Assembly (NCBI GenBank): GCA_016458225.1
Contig: JAEMGR010000005.1
Coordinates: 372,001-436,000 of the forward strand
DNA length: 64,000 nt
DNA from: Myxococcaceae bacterium JPH2
Lineage (GTDB): Bacteria > Myxococcota > Myxococcia > Myxococcales > Myxococcaceae
Direction: 5' to 3'
Every line of letters begins with the position of its first letter. Position 1 is the stretch's first letter. Shown here piece by piece: positions 43,331 through 55,623 of this stretch. A model generated the notes under the pieces. The model made no database searches, had not been told where the DNA came from, and worked only from the letters and a program-made list of their open reading frames with translations. The translations under genes and the position numbers were made by a program.

Positions 43331-43334
<4 letters not shown>

Positions 43335-43843
43335 GAACGAACTCCTGGAACGGAAACAGAAACAGCGGCGGAGGCCGGAGCCACCGCGTTCGAGCCACGG
43401 CCCAGCTGCACCAGCCGCTCGGGCATCCGCGGCGCGGGCGCGCACAGGTCCGCCAGCGTCAAGCGCCCCAACGCCTCTTGAATGGCCTGGTTGATCAGCC
43501 GCCAGTGGCTGCGCACCTGGCACACGGATTCCAGCTCACACGGGGCGCCGCCCGACGTGTGCTGGCCACATTCCGTGAGGGACACGGGCCCTTCCAGCGA
43601 AGCCACCAGCTCCGCCAGGGAGATGTCCGGGGCCGGCCGGGACAGGCCGTAGCCTCCGCTCGCCCCACGGTGCGAAACCACCAGTCCCGCCGCCAGCAGG
43701 CCCTTGAGCACCTTGCTGGCCGAGGGCAGCGGCACGCGAGTCCGCGCCGCCAGCTCGCGCGTCGTCCGGGTCTCCCCGTCTGCGCGAGCCAACTCGGTCA
43801 TCAGCACGATGCCGTAGTCGGTCATCTTGCTCATCCGGAGCAT
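43331..43843 (-). CDS. Rrf2-family Fe-S regulator of the suf operon
   Basis: 170 residues. A winged helix ([15 protein letters not shown] ... [35 protein letters not shown]) is followed by the cluster-binding Cys92, Cys102 and Cys108 ([15 protein letters not shown]). This spacing is that of Rrf2 proteins which hold a [2Fe-2S] or [4Fe-4S] cluster. It heads the suf operon and overlaps sufB, so autoregulation by cluster status is expected. The C-terminal 40 residues are Ala/Val/Ser-rich. A second start at 43831 (MSKMTDYG) is possible. Often named SufR or IscR-like; I leave the symbol blank. Confidence 0.93.
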
Positions 43844-43900
43844 AGGTGCGGAGTTCTCCTTCCTTCGCCGAGGCCCTCGGGCCGCTGCGGGCTCTTACGT

Positions 43901-43925
43901 AATGTGGACTGCTCTAGTCCACATT
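43901..43925. promoter_or_regulatory. 25-bp perfect palindrome, probable Rrf2 operator
   Basis: AATGTGGACT-GCTCT-AGTCCACATT: 10-bp arms match perfectly around a 5-base centre. It lies 58 bases upstream of the rrf2 start in an A+T-rich pocket. Position at the head of an Fe-S-regulated operon, symmetry and length fit an Rrf2-dimer site. On the minus strand a weak -35 (TTGAAT) sits at its left edge, so binding would cover the promoter. Confidence 0.7.
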
Positions 43926-44051
43926 CAAATCAACGGGCAGCGCGGACCTGTCGGGAAGGAGGGCCTGCGCCCGAGGGGGCCCCCGGTGTTCCCGTCGGCG
44001 GGTAGGCGCTAGGGTGGGGCCTCGCCGCACTGCCCGTGAGGAGCACGAACA

Positions 44052-45239
44052 ATGCGTCTTCCCCTGCCGCTGCTGCTCGCCGCATTGGCCCTGCCAATGC
44101 TGGCCTGTGAGAAGAAAACCGCGTCCGCCGCGCCCGCCCCCGATGGCGCTCAGGCCGCCGCGCCCCAGGCCGATTCCGCCTCGGACACGATTCTCATCGG
44201 CGAGGTGGGCAGCCTGACCGGCAGCGAGGCCACGTTCGGCATCTCGGCGCGCAACGGCATCGAGCTGGCGCTGAACGAGGCGAACGCCGCGGGCGGAGTG
44301 AAGGGCAAGAAGGTCGCGGTGCGCGTCTATGACAGCCAGGGTCGCCCGGAAGAAGGCGCGCAGGCGGTGACGCGGCTCATCGCGCAGGACCACGTGTTGG
44401 CCGTGCTGGGCGAGGCGGCCTCGTCGGTGTCCATGGCCATGGCGGAGAAGGCGCAGGCGGCGAAGGTGCCGATGATTACGCCCACCTCGACGAGCCCCGA
44501 GGTGACGAAGAAGGGCGACTTCATCTTCCGCGTCTGCTTCATCGATCCGTTCCAGGGCCTGGTGATGGCGAAGTTCGCGCGTGAGAACCTCAAGCTCGAC
44601 AAGGTGGCGGTGCTCACGGACAACAAGAGCGCCTTCTCCGTGGGGCTCGCGGATGTCTTCAATCAGAAGTTCAAGGACTTCGGCGGCGAGGTGACGGGGA
44701 ACAAGAGCTACTCCAAGGGCGACACGGACTTCCGCGCCCAGCTCACCGCGTTGAAGAAGGTGAAGCCGCAGGCCGTGTTCGTGCCGGGCTACTACACGGA
44801 CGTGGGCATCATCGCGCGGCAGGCCCGCGAGATAGGGCTGACGGTGCCGCTGCTCGGCGGAGATGGCTGGGACTCGGACAAGCTGTTCGAGCTGGGCGGG
44901 TCGGCGTTGGAGGGCAGCTACTTCTCCAATCACTACTCACCGGATAATCCGGATCCGCGCATCCAGGACTTCCTCAAGAAGTACAAGCAGGCCTACGGCT
45001 CGGTGCCGGACAGCGTGGCGGTGCTCGCGTATGACGCCGCGCGGTTGCTGGTGGATGGCATGCGGCGCGCGCCCGACCTGAGCGGCCCGGCCATCCGCGA
45101 CGCCATCGCCGCGACGAAGAACTTCCCGGGCGTGGCGGGCACCGTGAACCTGGACGCGAACCGAGACGCCGTGAAGGAGGCCGTGGTGCTCAAGGTGGCC
45201 AACGGCAAGGCGGAGTTCGTCACCACCGTGGCGCCCTGA
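44052..45239 (+). CDS. Branched-chain amino-acid-type ABC binding lipoprotein
   Basis: 395 residues. Lipobox LPMLAC (Cys19) followed by an Ala-rich linker. The periplasmic binding fold (Leu/Ile/Val family) begins at ILIGEVGSLTGSEATFGISARNGIELALNEANAAGGVKGK. Later segments are GEAASSVSMAMAEKAQAAKVPMITPTSTSPEVT and AVFVPGYYTDVGIIARQAREIG. Binds amino acids, amides or similar ligands. No permease or ATPase gene is next to it, so it is an orphan that may feed a distant transporter or act as a sensor. A strong hairpin follows. Confidence 0.92.
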   Translation: MRLPLPLLLAALALPMLACEKKTASAAPAPDGAQAAAPQADSASDTILIGEVGSLTGSEATFGISARNGIELALNEANAAGGVKGKKVAVRVYDSQGRPEEGAQAVTRLIAQDHVLAVLGEAASSVSMAMAEKAQAAKVPMITPTSTSPEVTKKGDFIFRVCFIDPFQGLVMAKFARENLKLDKVAVLTDNKSAFSVGLADVFNQKFKDFGGEVTGNKSYSKGDTDFRAQLTALKKVKPQAVFVPGYYTDVGIIARQAREIGLTVPLLGGDGWDSDKLFELGGSALEGSYFSNHYSPDNPDPRIQDFLKKYKQAYGSVPDSVAVLAYDAARLLVDGMRRAPDLSGPAIRDAIAATKNFPGVAGTVNLDANRDAVKEAVVLKVANGKAEFVTTVAP

Positions 45240-45296: not shown

Positions 45297-45485
45297 TCAG
45301 GGCACGGGCGACTGGATGACGAAGTACATCGACTGGAAGTACTTGTTGAGGCCGTTGATGAGCGCGACGGTGTACGGCCAGCTCAACACGGTGAAGCCGA
45401 ACAGGGCCGCAGACACCACGGCATACTCCGTCATGGCTTGACCGCGACGGCGGCGGCGCAGCTCAGTGCGAGGAGTCGGCGTCAT
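45297..45485 (-). CDS. Flp-type mini-prepilin
   Basis: 62 residues. A short Arg-rich leader (ELRRRRRGQAMTEY) ends in the exact Flp processing motif G/xxxxEY: Gly15, then QAMT, Glu20, Tyr21. A hydrophobic helix (AVVSAALFGFTVLSWPYTVALI) and a short tail with aromatic residues (YFQSMYFVIQ) follow. This is the length and design of Tad/Flp major pilins. It is the last gene of the operon and its start overlaps the CX3C-protein gene by 23 bases. Confidence 0.82.
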   Translation of the reverse strand: MTPTPRTELRRRRRGQAMTEYAVVSAALFGFTVLSWPYTVALINGLNKYFQSMYFVIQSPVP

Positions 45486-45726
45486 CGGTGTCTCCCTTGC
45501 GCGGGGTGTAGCCCCCCGTCTTGCAGTCCTTCTGGCAAGCGTCCTTTTCCTCGACGCACGCTTCAATGCACTTACCCGCCATCTTGCCGGCGGTCTTCTT
45601 GCACACGGCCTTGCAGACTTCGGCGTCGCTCTCACACTGCTTCGAGCAGGATTGAGCGCGAGCGGGAGCGCTCGCCAACGTCAGGGCCAGGGCACCCGCC
45701 AGGGTCCACATTCCAAGCAGCTTCAT
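45463..45726 (-). CDS. Small secreted four-CX3C protein
   Basis: 87 residues. A signal peptide (ending about ASAPARA) leaves a 62-residue helical protein with eight Cys in four CX3C pairs: 27/31, 38/42, 53/57 and 64/68. The spacing (6, 10, 6 residues between pairs) is symmetrical, as in twin-CX3C helical hairpins stapled by disulfides. Acidic/Lys-rich tail. I do not know a named family. It lies in the pilin operon, between the 287-residue anchored protein and the Flp-type pilin, and may be a periplasmic chaperone or minor subunit. Confidence 0.8.
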   Translation of the reverse strand: MKLLGMWTLAGALALTLASAPARAQSCSKQCESDAEVCKAVCKKTAGKMAGKCIEACVEEKDACQKDCKTGGYTPRKGDTDDADSSH

Positions 45727-45748
45727 TTTCGCGTCCTCCGTTCGGCGC

Positions 45749-46612
45749 TCACTCAGAGGCCTGAGCGCGCTGCATCAGCGACAGGTTGAACTCCACGCCG
45801 GTGCCGGTCTGCCGCAGCAGCATCTGGCCCACGGTTCCATCATGGCTCACTTCAAACGAGCGGGACTGGCCCGCGGACTCTGCCGAGCTGCCCGCTTGCC
45901 AACCGCGAGCCTCCAGCGCCTTGCGCCAGTCTGACTCAGACTCGGCCAGCGAGTCCTCGGACATCTTGCCGGTCACGACGTGGTTGGTGGCGCCTTCCAT
46001 CTTCAGGGAGATGAGCTGAGGCGCAACCGCCGAGGCCGGCATGGGCATCCAGTCCGGCACCTTCGAACCGCGGTCGGCCAGATTGGCCATCTGCCCCGCG
46101 GACACGAACACCAGCGTCTCGCCGCCCTGCGCCAGCACGGACACCAGCCGGATCTCATCATCCGCCGGGCTCCAGTAGCCCACGTAGCCGCCGTTGGTCC
46201 CCAGGTCCGCGCTCAGCGGGGGAAGTCCTGCATCCACCAGCAGGCCGCGGTAGTGCGACAGCACCTGGCGAGGCGAGTCCTTGGTGGAGAACCACGCGAC
46301 CGCGATGGGGACATCCGGGCCCAGGTAGTCCGCCGCGAGGGCCTCGGGCGCTGTGGAGTCACCCGGGTACGGCGGGAAGCCCGACAAGGAGCGCTCCAGG
46401 ATCGCCTGATCCTCCCGCGAGCGCTCGGGCGAGCGGGAGGTCGGAGGCAGCATCGCGGAGGCCTTCTGCTCCACCTTCTCGAGTGGCGACTCCGACTCGC
46501 GAGAGTAGACGGCGTCCTCCCAGGCAAAGCCCAGGAGCGCGCCCGCCACCGTGACTGCGAACAGCAACAGCGACAGCCGGACCGGAAGACTGGTGCGAAG
46601 CAGCTTCAGCAC
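45749..46612 (-). CDS. Membrane-anchored hypothetical protein of the pilin operon
   Basis: 287 residues, not recognised. One N-terminal membrane helix (VRLSLLLFAVTVAGALLGFAW), an acidic linker, then a periplasmic region with two similar-looking alpha/beta parts: VPIAVAWFSTKDSPRQVLSHYRGLL (near 105) and a second around LKMEGATNHVVTGKMSEDSLAESESDWRKALEARGW (near 210). Internal duplication is possible. It overlaps the TadE-like gene by 7 bases and is therefore part of the same operon, possibly an assembly or anchoring factor. Confidence 0.72.
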   Translation of the reverse strand: MLKLLRTSLPVRLSLLLFAVTVAGALLGFAWEDAVYSRESESPLEKVEQKASAMLPPTSRSPERSREDQAILERSLSGFPPYPGDSTAPEALAADYLGPDVPIAVAWFSTKDSPRQVLSHYRGLLVDAGLPPLSADLGTNGGYVGYWSPADDEIRLVSVLAQGGETLVFVSAGQMANLADRGSKVPDWMPMPASAVAPQLISLKMEGATNHVVTGKMSEDSLAESESDWRKALEARGWQAGSSAESAGQSRSFEVSHDGTVGQMLLRQTGTGVEFNLSLMQRAQASE

Positions 46613-47733
46613 TTCTCAGCCTGCTTGCAGCCCATGTAGTTGTTCCCGCGCTTCTTGTAGCTGTCCCGGGTGCGGTTCTTGTCCCAGTCCTGCCACTCGG
46701 TGTTGAAGAAGCGGGTCTTCGAGCCTGCCACGGTGATCTCCTCCGTGGGCTCCGCGCCCTTCTGCGGGGCAATGGCCACGGCGGGCCGGGTCGGATCATC
46801 CGCCTCGAGGCCCATGATGGGACCCGTGAGCCGCGTCGCCAGCAGCGCTGGGCTCAGGAGCTGGTCGCTGATGGCGTTCGCGAAGAACTGCGCCGAGTAG
46901 GTGACCACCAGCGGGTAACCGATGTTGAACTTGTTCTGATAGATGTTCTCGACGCGATTATAGAACTCGCCCTTCTTGTCACCCGGGCGAATGTCCGCGT
47001 CGTCAGTCAGCGCCCACGTGTCCGTGAGGATCGCCAGCCTCTGTTCCTTGATGTAGTAGGCGTTGTCGCTGGACCCCTGCTGCGAGTTGGTGTGCGTCGC
47101 GGCGGCGCCGCCCTGCCAGTGCTTCTTGGTGAGCTTGTCCACCTCGCTGAACTGAGGGAACAGCGTCTCGGGCAAGAGGTAGTTCTCCACGATGGCGCGC
47201 GCGGAGCACTTGATGATGCCGCCGTTCGTGAACTTGCTCATGAACTCCTTGTGGATGGGCACGCCCAAGCCGCCCGCGCCCTTCTCAGGTGCCTCGCACG
47301 TGACCTGCTTCGCGTTGGCGTTGACCCAGCACACGTGGGCGACCAGCGCCTTGTGGTGGTCCGTGTCTGCGCAGTCCTTGTAATTCACCGTCTCATCGCC
47401 GTCCGGGTCGCTGCTGGGAACGGTGACGAACTCGGTGGGCCGGTCCGTGCCAGACTCGTGGTCGCAGAACATCAAGCGCGCCTGCTTCTGGACCACGCTG
47501 GCGCCACCCGCGGGCGCCTTGGCTCCGGCCTTCTTCAGGTCCTTCGAGTAGTCCTGCACGGTGAAGTCCCACACCGTGGAGAGCGCCGCTTCCTGCGAGT
47601 CCAGCGAGTAGCGCAGGAGGTCGTCCAGGAAGATGGCGTACATGAAGACGGGGATGAAGACGATCATGCTGAGGGCCGTCTCCACCGCCGCGGCCCCTCG
47701 CATGTGACGACGCTGACGCAGAAGCTTCTTCAC
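46606..47733 (-). CDS. TadE-like minor pilin with large C-terminal domain
   Basis: 375 residues. Leader MKKLLRQRRHMRG then AAAVETALSMIVFIPVFMYAIF: Gly13 at the cleavage point and Glu18 at +5, the TadE pattern. The remaining 335 residues are an unusually large exported domain (TadE is normally about 150-200 residues), containing several Cys (FCDHES, NYKDCADTD, HVCWVNANAKQVTCEA) that suggest disulfides. Ends NYMGCKQAEKC. Overlaps the TadG-like gene by 4 bases. Confidence 0.8.
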   Translation of the reverse strand: MKKLLRQRRHMRGAAAVETALSMIVFIPVFMYAIFLDDLLRYSLDSQEAALSTVWDFTVQDYSKDLKKAGAKAPAGGASVVQKQARLMFCDHESGTDRPTEFVTVPSSDPDGDETVNYKDCADTDHHKALVAHVCWVNANAKQVTCEAPEKGAGGLGVPIHKEFMSKFTNGGIIKCSARAIVENYLLPETLFPQFSEVDKLTKKHWQGGAAATHTNSQQGSSDNAYYIKEQRLAILTDTWALTDDADIRPGDKKGEFYNRVENIYQNKFNIGYPLVVTYSAQFFANAISDQLLSPALLATRLTGPIMGLEADDPTRPAVAIAPQKGAEPTEEITVAGSKTRFFNTEWQDWDKNRTRDSYKKRGNNYMGCKQAEKC

Positions 47734-49274
47734 AGGGACACCCCCGGAACGTTGGCGATCGTGGCGCCGTCCATGTTGCCCGCCAGCCCCAACACCTTGG
47801 CGGCCTCCTGGCCGTCACGGAACGGATGCAGCTTGGCGCGCCAGTACGGGTTGAAGAGCGTGGGCGCCTCCGCCCAGCCGTTCTGCCCGAAGCGATGGTA
47901 GTAGACGAGCGCCTTGGAGAGCGCAGCGCCCTCGTCCGCGGCGAGCACGAGCGTTCCGGTGCCCTGCGCGCCGTGGTTGAACTTGATGGTGGCGGAGGAG
48001 TTGATCTCCCAGTCCGCCTTCGACGCGTTGCCCACGCGCAGCTTCTTGGTGACGTAGCTGTAGGCGCGCGGCTGGCCGTAGTCCTTCTTCTCGTCCGTGC
48101 TCCCGCGGAACTTCATGAAGCAGTTGCCCGAGCCGATGCAGCTCGTCAGGGCCTTGGCCATCACGCCCTCGAACTTGTGGTTGCCCTTGTGCGCGTTGTT
48201 CGGCTTGTGACCGCCGTTGCCGCTGTCGCTGTAGACCTCAGCGCTAAAGGGCATCCACGGCGAGATGCCGTCCTTCCACTGGGCAAACATGGCGCCACCG
48301 TTCTCCCTGGACGTCACCACCTTGCCCTCCTTGCCGGACTTGCCCTTGAGCTTCCAGCCGCTCTTGTCCTCCGCGACAGAGCTGCCGCCCTTGCTGACGG
48401 CAGGAATGGGGAAGTGCAGTCCGTCCCCCGGGATGTCGTTCATCAGCTCCTGGAGGTAGGAGGGGTGCATGATCATCAAGGGGAGGATGGTGGCTGCGAA
48501 CCCCGTCGCTCGGGTGGAGGGCCAGACCGGGCGGCTCGCGTTGGCGATCTCCGTCATGGTCTTGCTCGCGGCCTGGCGAGAGGTACTGCCCTCACCGCCC
48601 ATGCACGGCAACCCATCCACGGCGCAGTTGAACTCGTTGGCGTTGAGCCCGCCCACGGCCGCCGAGAGCGTAGACGCGCCCGGGGCGTTGTAGTCGGTCA
48701 GATCCTTCAGGTTGCTCGAGCTTCCATCCAGCACCGTCTTCGCGGTCTTGAGATGCACCGCGTCCTGAGAGGCATGGATGGTGTCGATCATCCGATCCAG
48801 ATTTTCGACGACCTTCTCCATGGTCTCGTCGAGGTCCTTGACCTTGTTCCCGTAGTTTCGAGATTTGTTTCCGTACTTACTGGCGATGCGTATCGCCTTG
48901 ATGCCGTGGATGCAGTGCTTGATGCAGGTCCAGCAAGCGCACTGCGCGAACTCCATGGCGGCGATGATGTAGAAGTTGATCTTCTGTGCACTCATCATGT
49001 CCGAGGTCAGGCTCGCCGCGGACACGTACGCGTGCATGCTGGTCATCGCCACGTAGGAAGCGGCGATGGCCCGGTTGCTGGCCGCGTAGTAGTTCAGCGC
49101 GCGCGCCTCCATGACGGCCATGGAGTAGGCGAGGCTGTCGCTATGCTGTTGGAGGCTGACCTTCTCCCGCAGCGCGTGGCTGAGGTTGAAGCTCAACGTC
49201 GTCATCAGCGCCATGATGAGGAACGACAGGCAGGCCAGAACCAAGGACTGGCCACGCGCCTTGCGCTGCTTCAT
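47730..49274 (-). CDS. TadG-like pilus assembly protein
   Basis: 514 residues. N-terminus MKQRKARGQSLVLACLSFLIMALMTTLSF follows the TadG pattern (basic leader, GQS, membrane helix), but the +5 Glu is absent. The exported part is mostly helical at first (QQHSDSLAYSMAVMEARALNYYAASNRAIAAS), typical of the TadG N-terminal region, with Cys in FAQCACWTCIKHCIHG. The von Willebrand A domain of classical TadG is not evident. The ATG at 49274 overlaps the upstream TadE stop (ATGA); an ATG at 49292 lies inside that gene. Confidence 0.78.
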   Translation of the reverse strand: MKQRKARGQSLVLACLSFLIMALMTTLSFNLSHALREKVSLQQHSDSLAYSMAVMEARALNYYAASNRAIAASYVAMTSMHAYVSAASLTSDMMSAQKINFYIIAAMEFAQCACWTCIKHCIHGIKAIRIASKYGNKSRNYGNKVKDLDETMEKVVENLDRMIDTIHASQDAVHLKTAKTVLDGSSSNLKDLTDYNAPGASTLSAAVGGLNANEFNCAVDGLPCMGGEGSTSRQAASKTMTEIANASRPVWPSTRATGFAATILPLMIMHPSYLQELMNDIPGDGLHFPIPAVSKGGSSVAEDKSGWKLKGKSGKEGKVVTSRENGGAMFAQWKDGISPWMPFSAEVYSDSGNGGHKPNNAHKGNHKFEGVMAKALTSCIGSGNCFMKFRGSTDEKKDYGQPRAYSYVTKKLRVGNASKADWEINSSATIKFNHGAQGTGTLVLAADEGAALSKALVYYHRFGQNGWAEAPTLFNPYWRAKLHPFRDGQEAAKVLGLAGNMDGATIANVPGVSL

Positions 49275-50023
49275 TGCCAGGTGAAGACGCATTCGTTTCT
49301 CTGGGGCAGGGGGTTTTGGGAGAGGAAGAAGTTGGACTGCATCCGCATCGTGTAGGTCGCGCGGATGGGAAGGACGTAGTGGCGCTGCGCGGCCGCGGCC
49401 TCGTACTGGCCATCGTTCTTGCGGAACTTGCGCTCATTCTGAGGCGTCTTTCCCAAACGGAGCACGGGCGGCAGCTCCCGGGCTCGGACGATTTGGTAGA
49501 TCACCATGTCCGCGAAGGGGATGGGCATCCGATAGTTGAACGTGACCTGCACGCGCAGCTTGGTGCGCTGGCCCTGGGCCCAGTCATCGCTCGCGGAGTT
49601 CTTGGGGTTGTCGAAATCGAATTCCCCGCTCCCGCCACCCACCTCGTTGCGCAGGGGACCACAGATGGTCACCTCCGCGTACTTCAGGGCACTGTCCATC
49701 ATCTTGTTGGCCATGACTTCGGGCCAGGCGAACTTGGCCGCGAACTCCGACCCGCTGGTCACGGTCTTGATGTACTCGGCGCCGCCCGAGGGCTTGCTCA
49801 CCATGGGGAGCAGGACTCCGAGTGCGGCCTTTTCCATCTGCCCGACGTTGGCGCTGTGGATGGAGCCCGCTCGCACGGCCTTGTAGGCCGCGTACTTCGT
49901 CATCAGCCGAGCCTGATGCATCAGTCCAAGCTGGAGAGTCCCGAGGATCAGGAATACAAAGAGAGGCAGGACGATAGCCGTCTCGACGGCGGCCTGCCCA
50001 TCCTCACGATTTCGCGCCTTCAT
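49271..50023 (-). CDS. TadE-like minor pilin
   Basis: 250 residues. MKARNREDGQAAVETAIVLPLFVFLILGTLQLGLMHQARL: Gly9 cleavage point, Glu14 at +5, then a hydrophobic helix and a Tyr/Ala-rich helix (TKYAAYKAVRAGSIHSA), a textbook TadE N-terminus. The exported domain of about 200 residues ends with a Cys in NECVFTWQ. First gene of the pilin operon. An ATG at 50038 would add five residues; neither start has a clear ribosome site. Confidence 0.88.
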   Translation of the reverse strand: MKARNREDGQAAVETAIVLPLFVFLILGTLQLGLMHQARLMTKYAAYKAVRAGSIHSANVGQMEKAALGVLLPMVSKPSGGAEYIKTVTSGSEFAAKFAWPEVMANKMMDSALKYAEVTICGPLRNEVGGGSGEFDFDNPKNSASDDWAQGQRTKLRVQVTFNYRMPIPFADMVIYQIVRARELPPVLRLGKTPQNERKFRKNDGQYEAAAAQRHYVLPIRATYTMRMQSNFFLSQNPLPQRNECVFTWQ

Positions 50024-50219: not shown

Positions 50220-50882
50220 ATGAACTGGCACGTGGGTATGAAGGTGGGCCTGCTGGTGACGGTGTTGTGCGCGGTGGCCTGCAGCGACAAGAAGGATGAT
50301 CCCGGAACTCCAGGCGAGGGTGTTGAGCGTCCCGGCATGGGGACGTCGACGAAGCCTCCGGAGGGGGCACCCTTCACGCTGCCCGCGGGGGTGGAGTGGA
50401 TCAACCCCACCATCAAGAGCTACAACGCTGTATTCCCGGAGAAGTGCCACGACAAGAAGGAGTCGGACGGCCGAGGGAGCGGTGACCTGGTCCGGCTGTG
50501 CCTGGCGCTGCGCAACACGACGACCCAGCTCGTGCGCGTCACCTTCCCCGCCGGGATGATCTTCATCTCCGAGAGCCTGGACGTGCAGAACGGCGTCCTC
50601 GTCCAGGGAGAGACGGTGGAGTTGCCCCCCACGCAGGAGTTCTACGTCCCGCTGTTCCTCTACTGCCTCAACTCAGATCGCAGCGGCAGCTACCCGGATG
50701 ATGAGTTCCGTCCCGGCCCCATCACCCAGTACAAGGACTTCCTGGACTTCTTCACGCTGCTGGCGAACAAGAAGCTGCCGCCGTCCTCGGCTGAGCTGCA
50801 GCAGGCCGTGTGGCACCTGTCCACTGGCGACGGCCTCAGCGACAAGGACCGGAACGTCATCAACGGCTTCAGCGCCAAGTAG
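50220..50882 (+). CDS. Lipoprotein of unknown function
   Basis: 220 residues. Lipobox VAC with Cys21 after a hydrophobic helix. A Gly/Pro/Thr linker precedes a beta-rich domain (GDLVRLCLALRNTTTQLVRVTFPAGMIF, DVQNGVLVQGETVELPPTQEFYVPLFLYCLN), which recalls extracellular binding folds. The C-terminal part is helical (LQQAVWHLSTGDGLSDKDRNVINGF), a pattern seen in thioester/TQXA-type adhesin domains (weak resemblance). AAAAAGGAG before the ATG is a strong ribosome site. Divergent from the pilin operon. Confidence 0.75.
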   Translation: MNWHVGMKVGLLVTVLCAVACSDKKDDPGTPGEGVERPGMGTSTKPPEGAPFTLPAGVEWINPTIKSYNAVFPEKCHDKKESDGRGSGDLVRLCLALRNTTTQLVRVTFPAGMIFISESLDVQNGVLVQGETVELPPTQEFYVPLFLYCLNSDRSGSYPDDEFRPGPITQYKDFLDFFTLLANKKLPPSSAELQQAVWHLSTGDGLSDKDRNVINGFSAK

Positions 50883-50930: not shown

Positions 50931-51752
50931 TTAGTCTTCGGCGCCGGACTCGTCCGCGCTGTCACCGGCATAGCGGTTCATGCCGTAGCCATAGCCGCCA
51001 TTCGACGCGGGCGGGACGTAGTGGCGGGAGACGTAGATGCCCGCTCCCAGGACAATCAGCGCCAGCACCGCATACAGCGCGGGGCGGCTGGGATTGGCTC
51101 GCCATGCCCAGCCGCGCTCGCGACGGCGCTGGAAGCGCGGAGCTACCGAGTACTCGCGCCAGGCCTCCTCACGCATGTCCGCCGCGGCGTCCGCGTTGCC
51201 CTCCAGGGCCAGAGCGCGAGACAGGAGCCAGCGGCCCTCGACCGTTCCCTGACGGGCCTGAAGGAAGCGCGTGAGAGCTTCCTGCGCGCCCTTCGCGTCG
51301 CCTCGTGCCAGCCGGAAGCGACCGCGCTCCAGGTCGATGGCGCCTTGACGGTACGACTCATTCTGTCGCGCGGCCTCGTCCAGGAGGAGTTCGCCGCGAC
51401 GCGAATCCCCCGCTCCGAGGTACGCCACGCCCAACAGGAACAGCGTGTCCACGTCGTCGTCGCCCGCGTCCAGGTTGGGCTTGAGGATGTCCACCGCTTC
51501 CGCGTAGCGCTTCTGTCCCACTCGGATGTCCGCCAGCTCGGCGCGGGCGCGGCGATCATGCGGGTTGGTGAGGATGGCGCCCGCCAGCTCCCCGGCACGC
51601 TGCCAGCGCTTGAAGCTCCGCAGCGGACTGGGCAGCACCTGCAGGGTGAAGCGGTCCATGCCCCAGAGGGTCACCACCACGAGGACCAGCGACAGGAGCG
51701 GACGCCCCGTCAGCAGCGAGAAGAACATCCACAACATCCAGGAGCTCGACAT
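50931..51752 (-). CDS. TPR-repeat membrane protein
   Basis: 273 residues. Hydrophobic N-terminus (WMLWMFFSLLTGRPLLSLVLVVVTLWGM, one or two helices), then about four TPR units (for example RYAEAVDILKPNLDAGDDDVDTLFLLGVAYLGAGDSRRGELLLDEA). A second membrane helix (ALYAVLALIVLGAGIYV) and a Gly/Tyr-rich tail follow. Resembles YfgM/NrfG-type scaffold proteins; partner unknown. It lies 30 bases upstream-transcribed of hemW's stop and is probably in the same operon. Confidence 0.78.
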   Translation of the reverse strand: MSSSWMLWMFFSLLTGRPLLSLVLVVVTLWGMDRFTLQVLPSPLRSFKRWQRAGELAGAILTNPHDRRARAELADIRVGQKRYAEAVDILKPNLDAGDDDVDTLFLLGVAYLGAGDSRRGELLLDEAARQNESYRQGAIDLERGRFRLARGDAKGAQEALTRFLQARQGTVEGRWLLSRALALEGNADAAADMREEAWREYSVAPRFQRRRERGWAWRANPSRPALYAVLALIVLGAGIYVSRHYVPPASNGGYGYGMNRYAGDSADESGAED

Positions 51753-53000: not shown

Positions 53001-55490
53001 CTACTTCCCGCCCTTCAATTGCGCCTCCAGGCGCGCCACCTTCGCCTTCAGGCTGGCCGCTGTCTCCAGTGCCGTCTCGGCGGCCATGAGCTTGCGCTTC
53101 ATGGAGGCGACGTCCGCCTTGAGCTGGTCCCGCTCCGCCTCCCAGCCCGAAGGAGCGGCCGAACCCGCCGCGGCCGGCTTCGCCTCGACCGCCTGTCGCG
53201 CCGCCTGCTCGGCCTTCAGCGCGGCTTCCGCCTGCGCCAGCTTCGCTTCCAGCGTCGCTCGCGTCGCATCAACGTCCTTCGCTCGCGCCGCCTGCTCGGC
53301 CTTCAGCGCGGCTTCCGCCTGCGCCAGCTTCGCTTCCAGCGTCGCTCGCGTCGCATCAACGTCCTTCGCTCGCGCCGCCTGCTCGGCCTTCAGCGCGGCT
53401 TCCGCCTGCGCCAGCTTCGCTTCCAGCGTCGCTCGCGTCGCATCAACGTCCTTCGCTCGCGCGGCCTGCTCGGCCTTCAGCGCCGCTTCGGTCTGCGCGA
53501 GCTTTGCCTCGGCATCCTTGGCGCGCGCGGATTGAGCAGCCTGCGCCTCCGAGGCTCGGCGCTTGGACTCGGAGGTCTCCAGCGCTCCTTCCAACATCTT
53601 CACGCGCTGCTGGAGGCGATCCACCTTGTCGGCCTCCGCGCGCGCGGCGGCGAGCTGCTCGGTGATGGCCGCGAGTTGCTCTCGTGCGCCGTCCTCGCCC
53701 TGCGCGAGAGCGTCCACGCGGGCTTCGGTCTCCGCGGCTCGGAGCCGCTCGTCCTCGTGCGCGGCCTCGGCGGCTTCGCGGCGAGCCTGCTCCAGCGCGA
53801 GGTCTCCCTGCGCCTGCGAGACGACGCCCTGCAGTCGGGCCAGCTCCGCCTCGCGCTGCCCCGAGGCGGTCTCCAACATCGTCACGCGGGCCGACAGCCC
53901 CACGCGCTCCGCTTGCGTGGTGGCGACCTTCATCTCCACCACCGCGAGGTCCTTCTTCAGCGCATCCCGCTCGGCGCGCGCGGCCTCGACTCCGGCGGAC
54001 AGCTCCGCGACCTTCGCCTCCGCCTCGTGCACCGCTTCGCCCAGGGCGGCTGCGTCGGACTCCATCCGGTCGCGCAGCGAGACCTGCTCCACCTCGGCGG
54101 CCTCCAGGTGCTCCTTCAGCGCCGCAATCTCAGCCGTCAGCTCTTCGGCGCGCCCGGCCTGGGCCTGGGCCTCTTCGCGGGCTCGGGCCAGCTCCGCGTC
54201 GAGCGCCGTCACCCGCGCTTGCGCCTGGGTCAGCTCCGCGGTCCGGTTCTCCAGGGCCTTGCGCAGCGCGGGCAGCTCCGCCGCCTCGGTCGTGCGCGCG
54301 GTGAGCGCGGCCCGCAGCCCCACGGCATCCGCGTCCTTCAGCGCGAGCGCGCGCTCCAGCTCGGAGACCTGCCCCTGGAGTCCTCGGAGCCCCTCCTCCA
54401 CCACCGCGAGTTGGCGGCGCGCGTCGTCGCGCTCGGACTCCAGCGTCACCGCGCGCGACTGGGCTTCCTCGAGCGAGCTCTTGGACCAGTCGCTCTCGCT
54501 CTCCAGTGTTCCCAGTGCGCCTTGCGCCTCGGAGAGCGCGGCTTCCAATTGGGCGCTTCGCAGGGTCGCGGCGTCGCGCTCCTGGACGCTCGTGTCCAGC
54601 TCCGCCGTCAGCCGCTCCACGTCCGCCAGGTTGGCCTGGTACTGCTCCTGGACGGCCTCCAGGGCGCCCTTCGCCTCGGACTTCTCCGCGGCCAGTTCGG
54701 CGACCCGGTCCTGCGCCAACCCGAGGGCCTCCTTGGCTCCAACCAGCTCCTCGGCGAGCGCCCCACGGGACTCTCGCTCGGACTGGAGATCCGCGCCCAG
54801 CCGCGCCAGCTCGGCTTCGACTTCCGCCAGGGCCCGCGAGAGGTCCTTGCGGTCCGCCTCCACCGCGGCCAGCTCCGCTTCGGCCTGGTCGCGCTTCGCT
54901 TCCAGCTCGGCGGCCCGCGCCTCGGCCGCCGCGGCGCGCTTCTCCTCGCGCGCCGCCACCTCCGTGGCCTGCGTCAGCTTCACCGGCGAGTCCTTCACGC
55001 CGGCCAGGAGGGTGCGCGCCTCGATGGACTCCTTGCGCGCCTTCTCCAGGGACACCTTCACGCCGGCCAGCTCGCCCTCGCGCTCCGCGTACAGCGTGCG
55101 GGCCCGGGCCAGCGTCTCCGTCTTCTGCTTCACGACGGCGCGGAAGAACTCCAGCTTGTCCTCCGGCGAGGCGCCCATGGGCAGGCGCGGCTCGGGGGGC
55201 TCGCCGAAGGGGTCATTGCCCAGGGGTCGACGCACCACCGCGGCGGGGGCGGCCACGCTCGGGGCAGCCGGGGCCGGGCTCGCCGGGACGGCAGGAGCCG
55301 AAGCGGCCGGGCGACGCGGCGGCAGGGGCGGCGGAGCGGAAGCCGCGGGCGAAGGTGCGGAGACGGGCCTGGGAACCGAAGGAGGCCTGGGGGTTGCCGG
55401 AGGGGGGGAGGCAACGGCGGCGTTGCCATCGTCCAGCATGTCCCGCAGGTCCGCGAACGGATCCACCTCGTCCGAGGGTGACGACGGCAT
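53001..55490 (-). CDS. Long coiled-coil protein
   Basis: 829 residues. An acidic N-terminus (DEVDPFADLRDMLDDG) is followed by about 100 residues of Pro/Ala/Ser-rich linker with basic patches. Next comes a short segment PFGEPPEPRLPMGASPEDKLEFFRA, then more than 600 residues of unbroken Ala/Glu/Leu/Lys/Arg-rich coiled coil. It lacks signal peptide and membrane helix, so probably a cytoplasmic filament or scaffold like the coiled-coil parts of FrzS or AglZ, without their receiver domain. Near the C-terminus (about 677-763) a 29-residue unit is repeated three times identically. Function unknown. Confidence 0.82.
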   Translation of the reverse strand: MPSSPSDEVDPFADLRDMLDDGNAAVASPPPATPRPPSVPRPVSAPSPAASAPPPLPPRRPAASAPAVPASPAPAAPSVAAPAAVVRRPLGNDPFGEPPEPRLPMGASPEDKLEFFRAVVKQKTETLARARTLYAEREGELAGVKVSLEKARKESIEARTLLAGVKDSPVKLTQATEVAAREEKRAAAAEARAAELEAKRDQAEAELAAVEADRKDLSRALAEVEAELARLGADLQSERESRGALAEELVGAKEALGLAQDRVAELAAEKSEAKGALEAVQEQYQANLADVERLTAELDTSVQERDAATLRSAQLEAALSEAQGALGTLESESDWSKSSLEEAQSRAVTLESERDDARRQLAVVEEGLRGLQGQVSELERALALKDADAVGLRAALTARTTEAAELPALRKALENRTAELTQAQARVTALDAELARAREEAQAQAGRAEELTAEIAALKEHLEAAEVEQVSLRDRMESDAAALGEAVHEAEAKVAELSAGVEAARAERDALKKDLAVVEMKVATTQAERVGLSARVTMLETASGQREAELARLQGVVSQAQGDLALEQARREAAEAAHEDERLRAAETEARVDALAQGEDGAREQLAAITEQLAAARAEADKVDRLQQRVKMLEGALETSESKRRASEAQAAQSARAKDAEAKLAQTEAALKAEQAARAKDVDATRATLEAKLAQAEAALKAEQAARAKDVDATRATLEAKLAQAEAALKAEQAARAKDVDATRATLEAKLAQAEAALKAEQAARQAVEAKPAAAGSAAPSGWEAERDQLKADVASMKRKLMAAETALETAASLKAKVARLEAQLKGGK
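53201..53461 (-). repeat. Three identical 87-bp tandem repeats
   Basis: Copies start at 53201, 53288 and 53375 and are the same base for base; a degenerate fourth begins at 53462. Each encodes 29 residues of the type RAKDVDATRATLEAKLAQAE. In-frame, so copy-number change keeps the protein open. Identity at the DNA level points to recent duplication or gene conversion. Confidence 0.92.
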
Positions 55491-55604
55491 GTGCGTTCCG
55501 CAGGTTACCGGCCACGGGCGGTTTCCACCAGGGACGCGTGAAGCCCCCCAGCGCTTCCTCGCCCCCGAGGGAGTCCGGGTGCACAGTCTCCTCGACGCCA
55601 AGGC

Positions 55605-55623
55605 CACTGGACGTTAGCCAGTG
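55605..55623. promoter_or_regulatory. Small palindrome in divergent region
   Basis: CACTGG-ACGTTAG-CCAGTG (55605-55610 and 55618-55623), a perfect 6-bp inverted repeat about 65 bases before the M16 peptidase start and 115 bases before the coiled-coil gene. Possible operator; no known consensus matched. Confidence 0.3.

What the first reader, a model, noticed from the sequence alone, without database searches (positions are those of the whole stretch)
45297..50023. Orphan Tad/Flp-type pilin operon without secretion machinery
Six overlapping or adjacent genes encode two TadE-like proteins, a TadG-like protein, an Flp-type 62-residue pilin with an exact G/xxxxEY site, an anchored protein and a Cys-rich secreted protein. 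No TadA ATPase, TadB/C platform, RcpA secretin or prepilin peptidase gene is in the window. One TadE-like protein has a 335-residue Cys-containing exported domain, much larger than usual. Myxobacteria use a Tad-like (Kil) apparatus with large pilin-like tips for contact-dependent prey killing; this operon could supply alternative tip subunits.
Basis: partly seen in the sequence, partly recalled or inferred. Interest (0 to 1): 0.65.

Follow-up and report, generated by a model that had tools for sequence, protein, structure and literature searches.

The report
Tip3/KilO pilus-tip operon of predatory myxobacterium
These six genes are this soil predator's copy of a published Myxococcus gene set (Tip3 plus KilO) that builds one of several interchangeable tips for the pilus used to detect and kill prey on contact, and the genes it carries between the tip and its adapter remain uncharacterised.

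Summary
Six tightly packed minus-strand genes (45297-50023) encode three minor-pilin-like proteins, a membrane-anchored protein, an 8-Cys secreted protein and a 62-aa Flp with an exact G/QAMTEY site. No Tad machinery lies in the window, but the genome has a Kil system elsewhere: KilA, KilC and FHA-KilF on contig C32; KilB, KilK, two platform genes and Tip4 on C17; another tip on C3; a KilP-like pilin on C7. So the operon is orphan only locally.

It is the orthologue of the Myxococcus xanthus tip3 cluster plus kilO (mxan_1150), shown in 2025 (PMC12075869) to form one of four interchangeable tips of the Kil predation pilus. The synteny is the same (Flp, one gene, RisR, SufB), and the Flp next to RisR in M. 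vastator has KilO's published length, 59 aa.

Not described in the papers I could read: a 287-aa protein present in all 14 relatives (modelled as two Mog1/PsbP/DcrB-like domains, with a remote homologue in kil cluster II); a Cys-rich predicted helical hairpin found in half the relatives; and a divergent lipoprotein paralogous to one in kil cluster II.

The parts
49271..50023 (-). KilM3-type minor pilin (TadE-like), first gene of operon; upstream starts possible to 50095
   Evidence: PF07811 E 7.8e-13; 27-31% identical to first genes of the other two tip clusters of this genome
47730..49292 (-). KilN3-type large minor pilin (TadG-like), 520 aa, 9 Cys; predicted distal tip subunit
   Evidence: full-length orthologues 49-81% identical in 14 named loci; N-terminus homologous to kil cluster II KilN4
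46606..47733 (-). KilL3-type minor pilin (TadF position), 375 aa with long exported C-terminal region
   Evidence: orthologues in all 14 loci; N- and C-terminal motif shared with third gene of kil cluster II
45749..46612 (-). 287-aa inner-membrane-anchored periplasmic accessory protein, two Mog1/PsbP/DcrB-like domains (model)
   Evidence: in all 14 loci; AF2 pLDDT 78.6; DcrB 6e8a Z 9.1; profile match to 268-aa kil cluster II protein
45463..45726 (-). 87-aa secreted Cys-rich protein, CX3C-X6-CX3C-X10-CX3C-X6-CX3C
   Evidence: pattern exact in 7 of 8 family members; helical hairpin model, low confidence at ends; homologue in 7 of 14 loci
45297..45485 (-). KilO-type Flp adapter minor pilin, 62 aa, G/QAMTEY
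   Evidence: orthologue in all 14 loci, 52-98% identical; 59 aa in M. vastator, the published KilO length
50220..50882 (+). divergent lipoprotein (lipobox AVAC), paralogue of a kil cluster II lipoprotein
   Evidence: 30% identity over 179 aa, E 4e-25 to L063:13765-14430; at tip3 only in Citreicoccus and Corallococcus
43331..45239 (.). syntenic markers: branched-chain amino-acid-binding-type protein (44052-45239 +) and RisR-type Rrf2 regulator (43331-43843 -), followed by SufB (41898- -)
   Evidence: same order in 11 of 14 loci (SufB off the contig in L054); M. xanthus RisR = MXAN_1152, SufB = MXAN_1153, KilO = mxan_1150

Best explanation
This is the tip3 + kilO operon of a Citreicoccus-type myxobacterium. 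KilM3, KilN3 and KilL3 are exported minor pilins that, after leader cleavage (by KilA in M. xanthus), form a spearhead-like heterotrimer. KilO couples that trimer to the end of the KilP pilus. The pilus is built by the Kil machinery encoded elsewhere, and the tip helps recognise and kill prey together with the needleless T3SS. For M. xanthus the genetics is published and the trimer is an AlphaFold model; for this genome the function is inferred from orthology and synteny. My best guess for the conserved 287-aa anchored protein is a periplasmic assembly or holding factor for the tip (roughly 50%). The Cys-rich secreted protein is probably an optional accessory or cargo of this tip (speculative).
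For: Gene order and content match in all 14 named relatives. The Flp - one gene - RisR - SufB synteny matches mxan_1150, MXAN_1152 and MXAN_1153. The Flp is 59 aa in M. vastator and in the published KilO. The genome holds KilA, KilC and FHA-KilF in order on C32, and KilM/N/L4, KilK, CpaB/KilB and the only two Tad-type platform genes on C17, plus a further tip cluster on C3, a KilP-like Flp on C7 and two SctV-type T3SS proteins. Function in M. xanthus. Accessory protein: with controls.
Against: The M. xanthus DK1622 sequence itself was not compared; orthology rests on synteny, gene length and close Myxococcus relatives. KilN3 and KilL3 score below or without Pfam thresholds. Only three KilM-like loci were found here against four tips in M. 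xanthus, so the tip repertoire may differ. Prepilin processing and complex formation were not tested in this species.
Confidence: 0.93

Rival explanations
1. The operon is a set of minor pilins for another, non-predatory filament (an ordinary adhesive Tad pilus or the type IVa pilus) and not for Kil.
For: Pilin-like genes without local machinery could serve any type IV filament system in the genome; other T2SSE-type ATPases exist.
Against: Only one pair of Tad-type platform genes was found, on C17 in the kil cluster; the other T2SSF matches are two tandem-domain proteins on C13 and C1, next to T2SS/T4P-type ATPases. The M. xanthus orthologue works with Kil.
Confidence: 0.04
2. The operon is a decaying duplicate of kil cluster II with no present function.
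For: Its order parallels kil cluster II (KilM-KilN-KilL-accessory-...-Flp, and a lipoprotein paralogue).
Against: All frames are intact and conserved from Archangium and Corallococcus to Myxococcus, and tip3 is transcribed and functional in M. xanthus.
Confidence: 0.02
3. Sub-question: the 287-aa protein is a self-protection (immunity) factor rather than a tip-assembly factor.
For: The top Foldseek hit is the T6SS immunity protein TplEi (E 5.4e-5, prob 0.99); Tsi3 resembles Mog1p/PsbP. It is inner-membrane anchored with a periplasmic domain, where self-intoxication would be met.
Against: TM-scores are low (about 0.2), the fold is common and shared with DcrB and PsbP, and there is no significant sequence match to any immunity family. 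No toxic partner is shown.
Confidence: 0.15

Closest known systems
M. xanthus tip3 cluster + KilO (mxan_1150), Kil pilus
   Same: KilLMN trimer genes plus an Flp adapter; same neighbours (one gene, then RisR, SufB); separate from the kil machinery clusters
   Different: This genome's operon adds an 87-aa Cys-rich gene between the 287-aa gene and kilO, and a divergent lipoprotein; the close relatives of M. xanthus examined lack both
kil gene cluster II / Tip4 (MXAN_4648-4661)
   Same: Same order KilM-KilN-KilL-accessory-...-Flp with a related lipoprotein further on
   Different: Cluster II carries CpaB and platform genes; its KilN is 696 aa against 520; its accessory looks secreted rather than anchored
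Canonical Tad TadE/TadF/TadG
   Same: Pilin N-termini, gene trio, tip role proposed in PMC12075869
   Different: No local TadA/B/C, RcpA or RcpC; own Flp adapter; low sequence similarity
Mog1/PsbP/DcrB-like fold proteins (DcrB; T6SS immunity proteins TplEi, Tsi3)
   Same: Predicted fold of the 287-aa protein, in tandem
   Different: No sequence similarity; fixed in a pilus-tip operon; N-terminal membrane anchor
Neurotoxin B-IV-like helical hairpins (Pfam Toxin_13)
   Same: Cys spacing and hairpin shape of the 87-aa protein; one relative scores E 2.3e-5
   Different: The window protein itself scores only E 0.29, below cut-off; structural Z 4.5 is weak; convergence is likely and no activity is implied

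Membership tests
Kil-pilus Tip3 cluster with KilO | Three KilL/M/N-type minor pilin genes together | tested here: met
Kil-pilus Tip3 cluster with KilO | Cluster contains a short Flp (59 aa in M. xanthus) with G/xxxxE site | tested here: met
   62 aa, G/QAMTEY; 59 aa in M. vastator; published length
Kil-pilus Tip3 cluster with KilO | Genomic position next to MXAN_1151-1153 equivalents (RisR, SufB) | tested here: met
Kil-pilus Tip3 cluster with KilO | Direct sequence orthology to the M. xanthus proteins | not tested
   M. xanthus record was not among the retrieved loci; M. vastator, M. eversor and other Myxococcus were used instead
Kil-pilus Tip3 cluster with KilO | Kil machinery (KilA, KilB, KilC, FHA-KilF, platform) present in genome | tested here: met
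Kil-pilus Tip3 cluster with KilO | Heterotrimer formation and dependence on KilA, KilO and T3SS for killing | not testable with these tools
   shown only for M. xanthus
Stand-alone complete Tad locus | TadA, TadB/C, secretin and prepilin peptidase in the locus | tested here: not met
   no match within the window
Mog1/PsbP/DcrB-like proteins (287-aa protein) | Fold | tested here: inconclusive
   DcrB 6e8a Z 9.1 over 87 residues, rmsd 2.6; other rows Z 8 or less; no sequence match
Neurotoxin B-IV-like (Toxin_13; 87-aa protein) | Pfam score over cut-off | tested here: not met
   window protein 11.8 bits against cut-off 21; best relative E 2.3e-5

The most novel reading that the evidence does not exclude
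The Cys-rich 8-cysteine hairpin protein is a small secreted cargo (effector or receptor-binding cap) carried by the Tip3 pilus tip, with the tandem Mog1/PsbP-like protein as its chaperone or self-protection partner. This would be a first candidate for the tip-specific effectors postulated for the Kil system.
Probability: 0.1. Interest if true: 0.7.

Novelty: new member of a known kind. Interest (0 to 1): 0.35.

Why it matters
It shows that a locally orphan Tad-like pilin operon in a predatory bacterium is a swappable pilus tip, and it extends the tip3/kilO cluster to a Citreicoccus-type genome with an intact Kil apparatus. It also points to a conserved, uncharacterised protein in the same slot of two kil-related loci, and to a lineage-dependent disulfide-rich secreted protein. 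Both are concrete candidates for the open questions of how tips are assembled or chosen and what they deliver.

Tried and rejected
Direct BLASTP of the 287-aa protein against the 268-aa cluster II protein was not significant (E 0.12); only the profile comparison supported them. The 268-aa profile hit ribosomal S8 chains (best E 3e-4), judged chance. Fold search of the Cys-rich model gave no significant match. The viral structure library gave nothing with E at or below 0.001. The sigma-70 promoter scan found none and terminator counts equal chance, so operon boundaries rest on gene spacing. PF07811 sub-threshold hits on C1 and at C5:821223 were not pursued as a fourth tip: the ORFs there did not look like a tip cluster. 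Reading the 375-aa protein as an unusual giant TadE was rejected: KilL subunits normally have extended C-termini.

Full report
Observation. Stops and starts overlap by 22, 4, 7 and 23 bp, with one 22-nt gap, and codon-position GC is typical of coding DNA. TadE is certain by Pfam, TadG is sub-threshold, and the other four have no accepted family. The Flp ends its leader with RGQAMTEY, an exact G/xxxxEY.

Genome context. The window is G000:C5:372001-436000 of a 9.0-Mb myxobacterial genome in the same genus as the assembly matching Citreicoccus inhibens M34, a described predator. The rest of the genome contains a Kil apparatus split in two as in M. xanthus. KilA (A24 peptidase), KilC (secretin) and KilF (T2SSE with the Kil-typical FHA domain) follow each other on C32. 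KilM4, KilN4, KilL4, a 268-aa protein, KilK, a lipoprotein, CpaB/KilB and the only two Tad-type T2SSF genes follow on C17. A third tip-like trio is on C3, a KilP-like Flp (RGQGMTEY) on C7, and two SctV-type T3SS proteins on C12 and C1. I did not find a fourth tip.

Identification. Herrou et al. 2025 (PMC12075869) showed that M. xanthus has four kilLMN 'tip' clusters and that the tip3 cluster includes the 59-aa Flp KilO, mxan_1150. RisR is MXAN_1152 and sufB is MXAN_1153 (PMC9973013). In the window the Flp is followed by one transporter-protein gene, then an Rrf2 regulator, then SufB. This order is kept in 11 of 14 named relatives (SufB lies off the contig in L054), and the Flp beside RisR is 59 aa in Myxococcus vastator. 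The operon is therefore tip3 + kilO. The KilM/KilN/KilL assignment follows the gene order of cluster II (mxan_4660, 4659, 4658) and is an inference.

How it works. In M. xanthus, any single tip suffices for KilP polymerisation, loss of all four abolishes it, Tip3 needs KilA and the T3SS for killing, and KilO serves only Tip3. The heterotrimer and its docking are AlphaFold models in that paper. I infer the same mechanism here.

What the papers I could read do not describe (their supplements were not available). (a) The 287-aa protein lies between KilL3 and KilO in all 14 relatives. Its model (pLDDT 78.6) consists of an N-terminal helix and two similar alpha/beta domains. The best structural match is DcrB (Z 9.1, 87 residues), with PsbP and Mog1p lower down and the T6SS immunity protein TplEi as the top Foldseek row. 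The 268-aa protein of kil cluster II, which follows KilL4, is a remote relative by profile comparison (86.6%, E 4e-6), against control comparisons of 0.7% and 0.2%. (b) The 87-aa protein has four CX3C pairs with identical spacing in 7 of 8 family members. It models as a helical hairpin of moderate confidence and resembles neurotoxin B-IV-like hairpins only weakly, which I read as convergence. It occurs in 7 of 14 relatives and is missing from six of the seven loci named Myxococcus. (c) The divergent lipoprotein at 50220-50882 is a paralogue of a cluster II lipoprotein and is present at tip3 only in Citreicoccus and Corallococcus among the loci examined. Together these suggest that tip3 arose from a partial copy of kil cluster II; that is an inference without a tree.

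Verdict. The remaining interest is in the accessory genes.

Noticed in passing
L053:9228-17723, L055:9264-17776, L056:7072-15611: Tandem duplication of the tip3 set (two KilM-KilN-KilL-Flp units) in three Myxococcus species; the second unit lacks the 287-aa gene.
   Followed up: partly
L098:1453-1710 (G000:C7): KilP-like Flp (RGQGMTEY), candidate major pilin of the Kil pilus in this genome.
   Followed up: partly
L064:5708-8988 (G000:C3): A further tip-like trio with no Flp or 287-aa-type gene; could be Tip1 or Tip2.
   Followed up: no
window 53001-55607: Coiled-coil protein with near-identical tandem repeats near its C-terminus (about three copies of AKDVDATRATLEAKLAQAEAALKAEQAAR).
   Followed up: no
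window 50931-51752: 273-aa TPR-like protein, at the same side of tip3 in 11 of 14 relatives.
   Followed up: no
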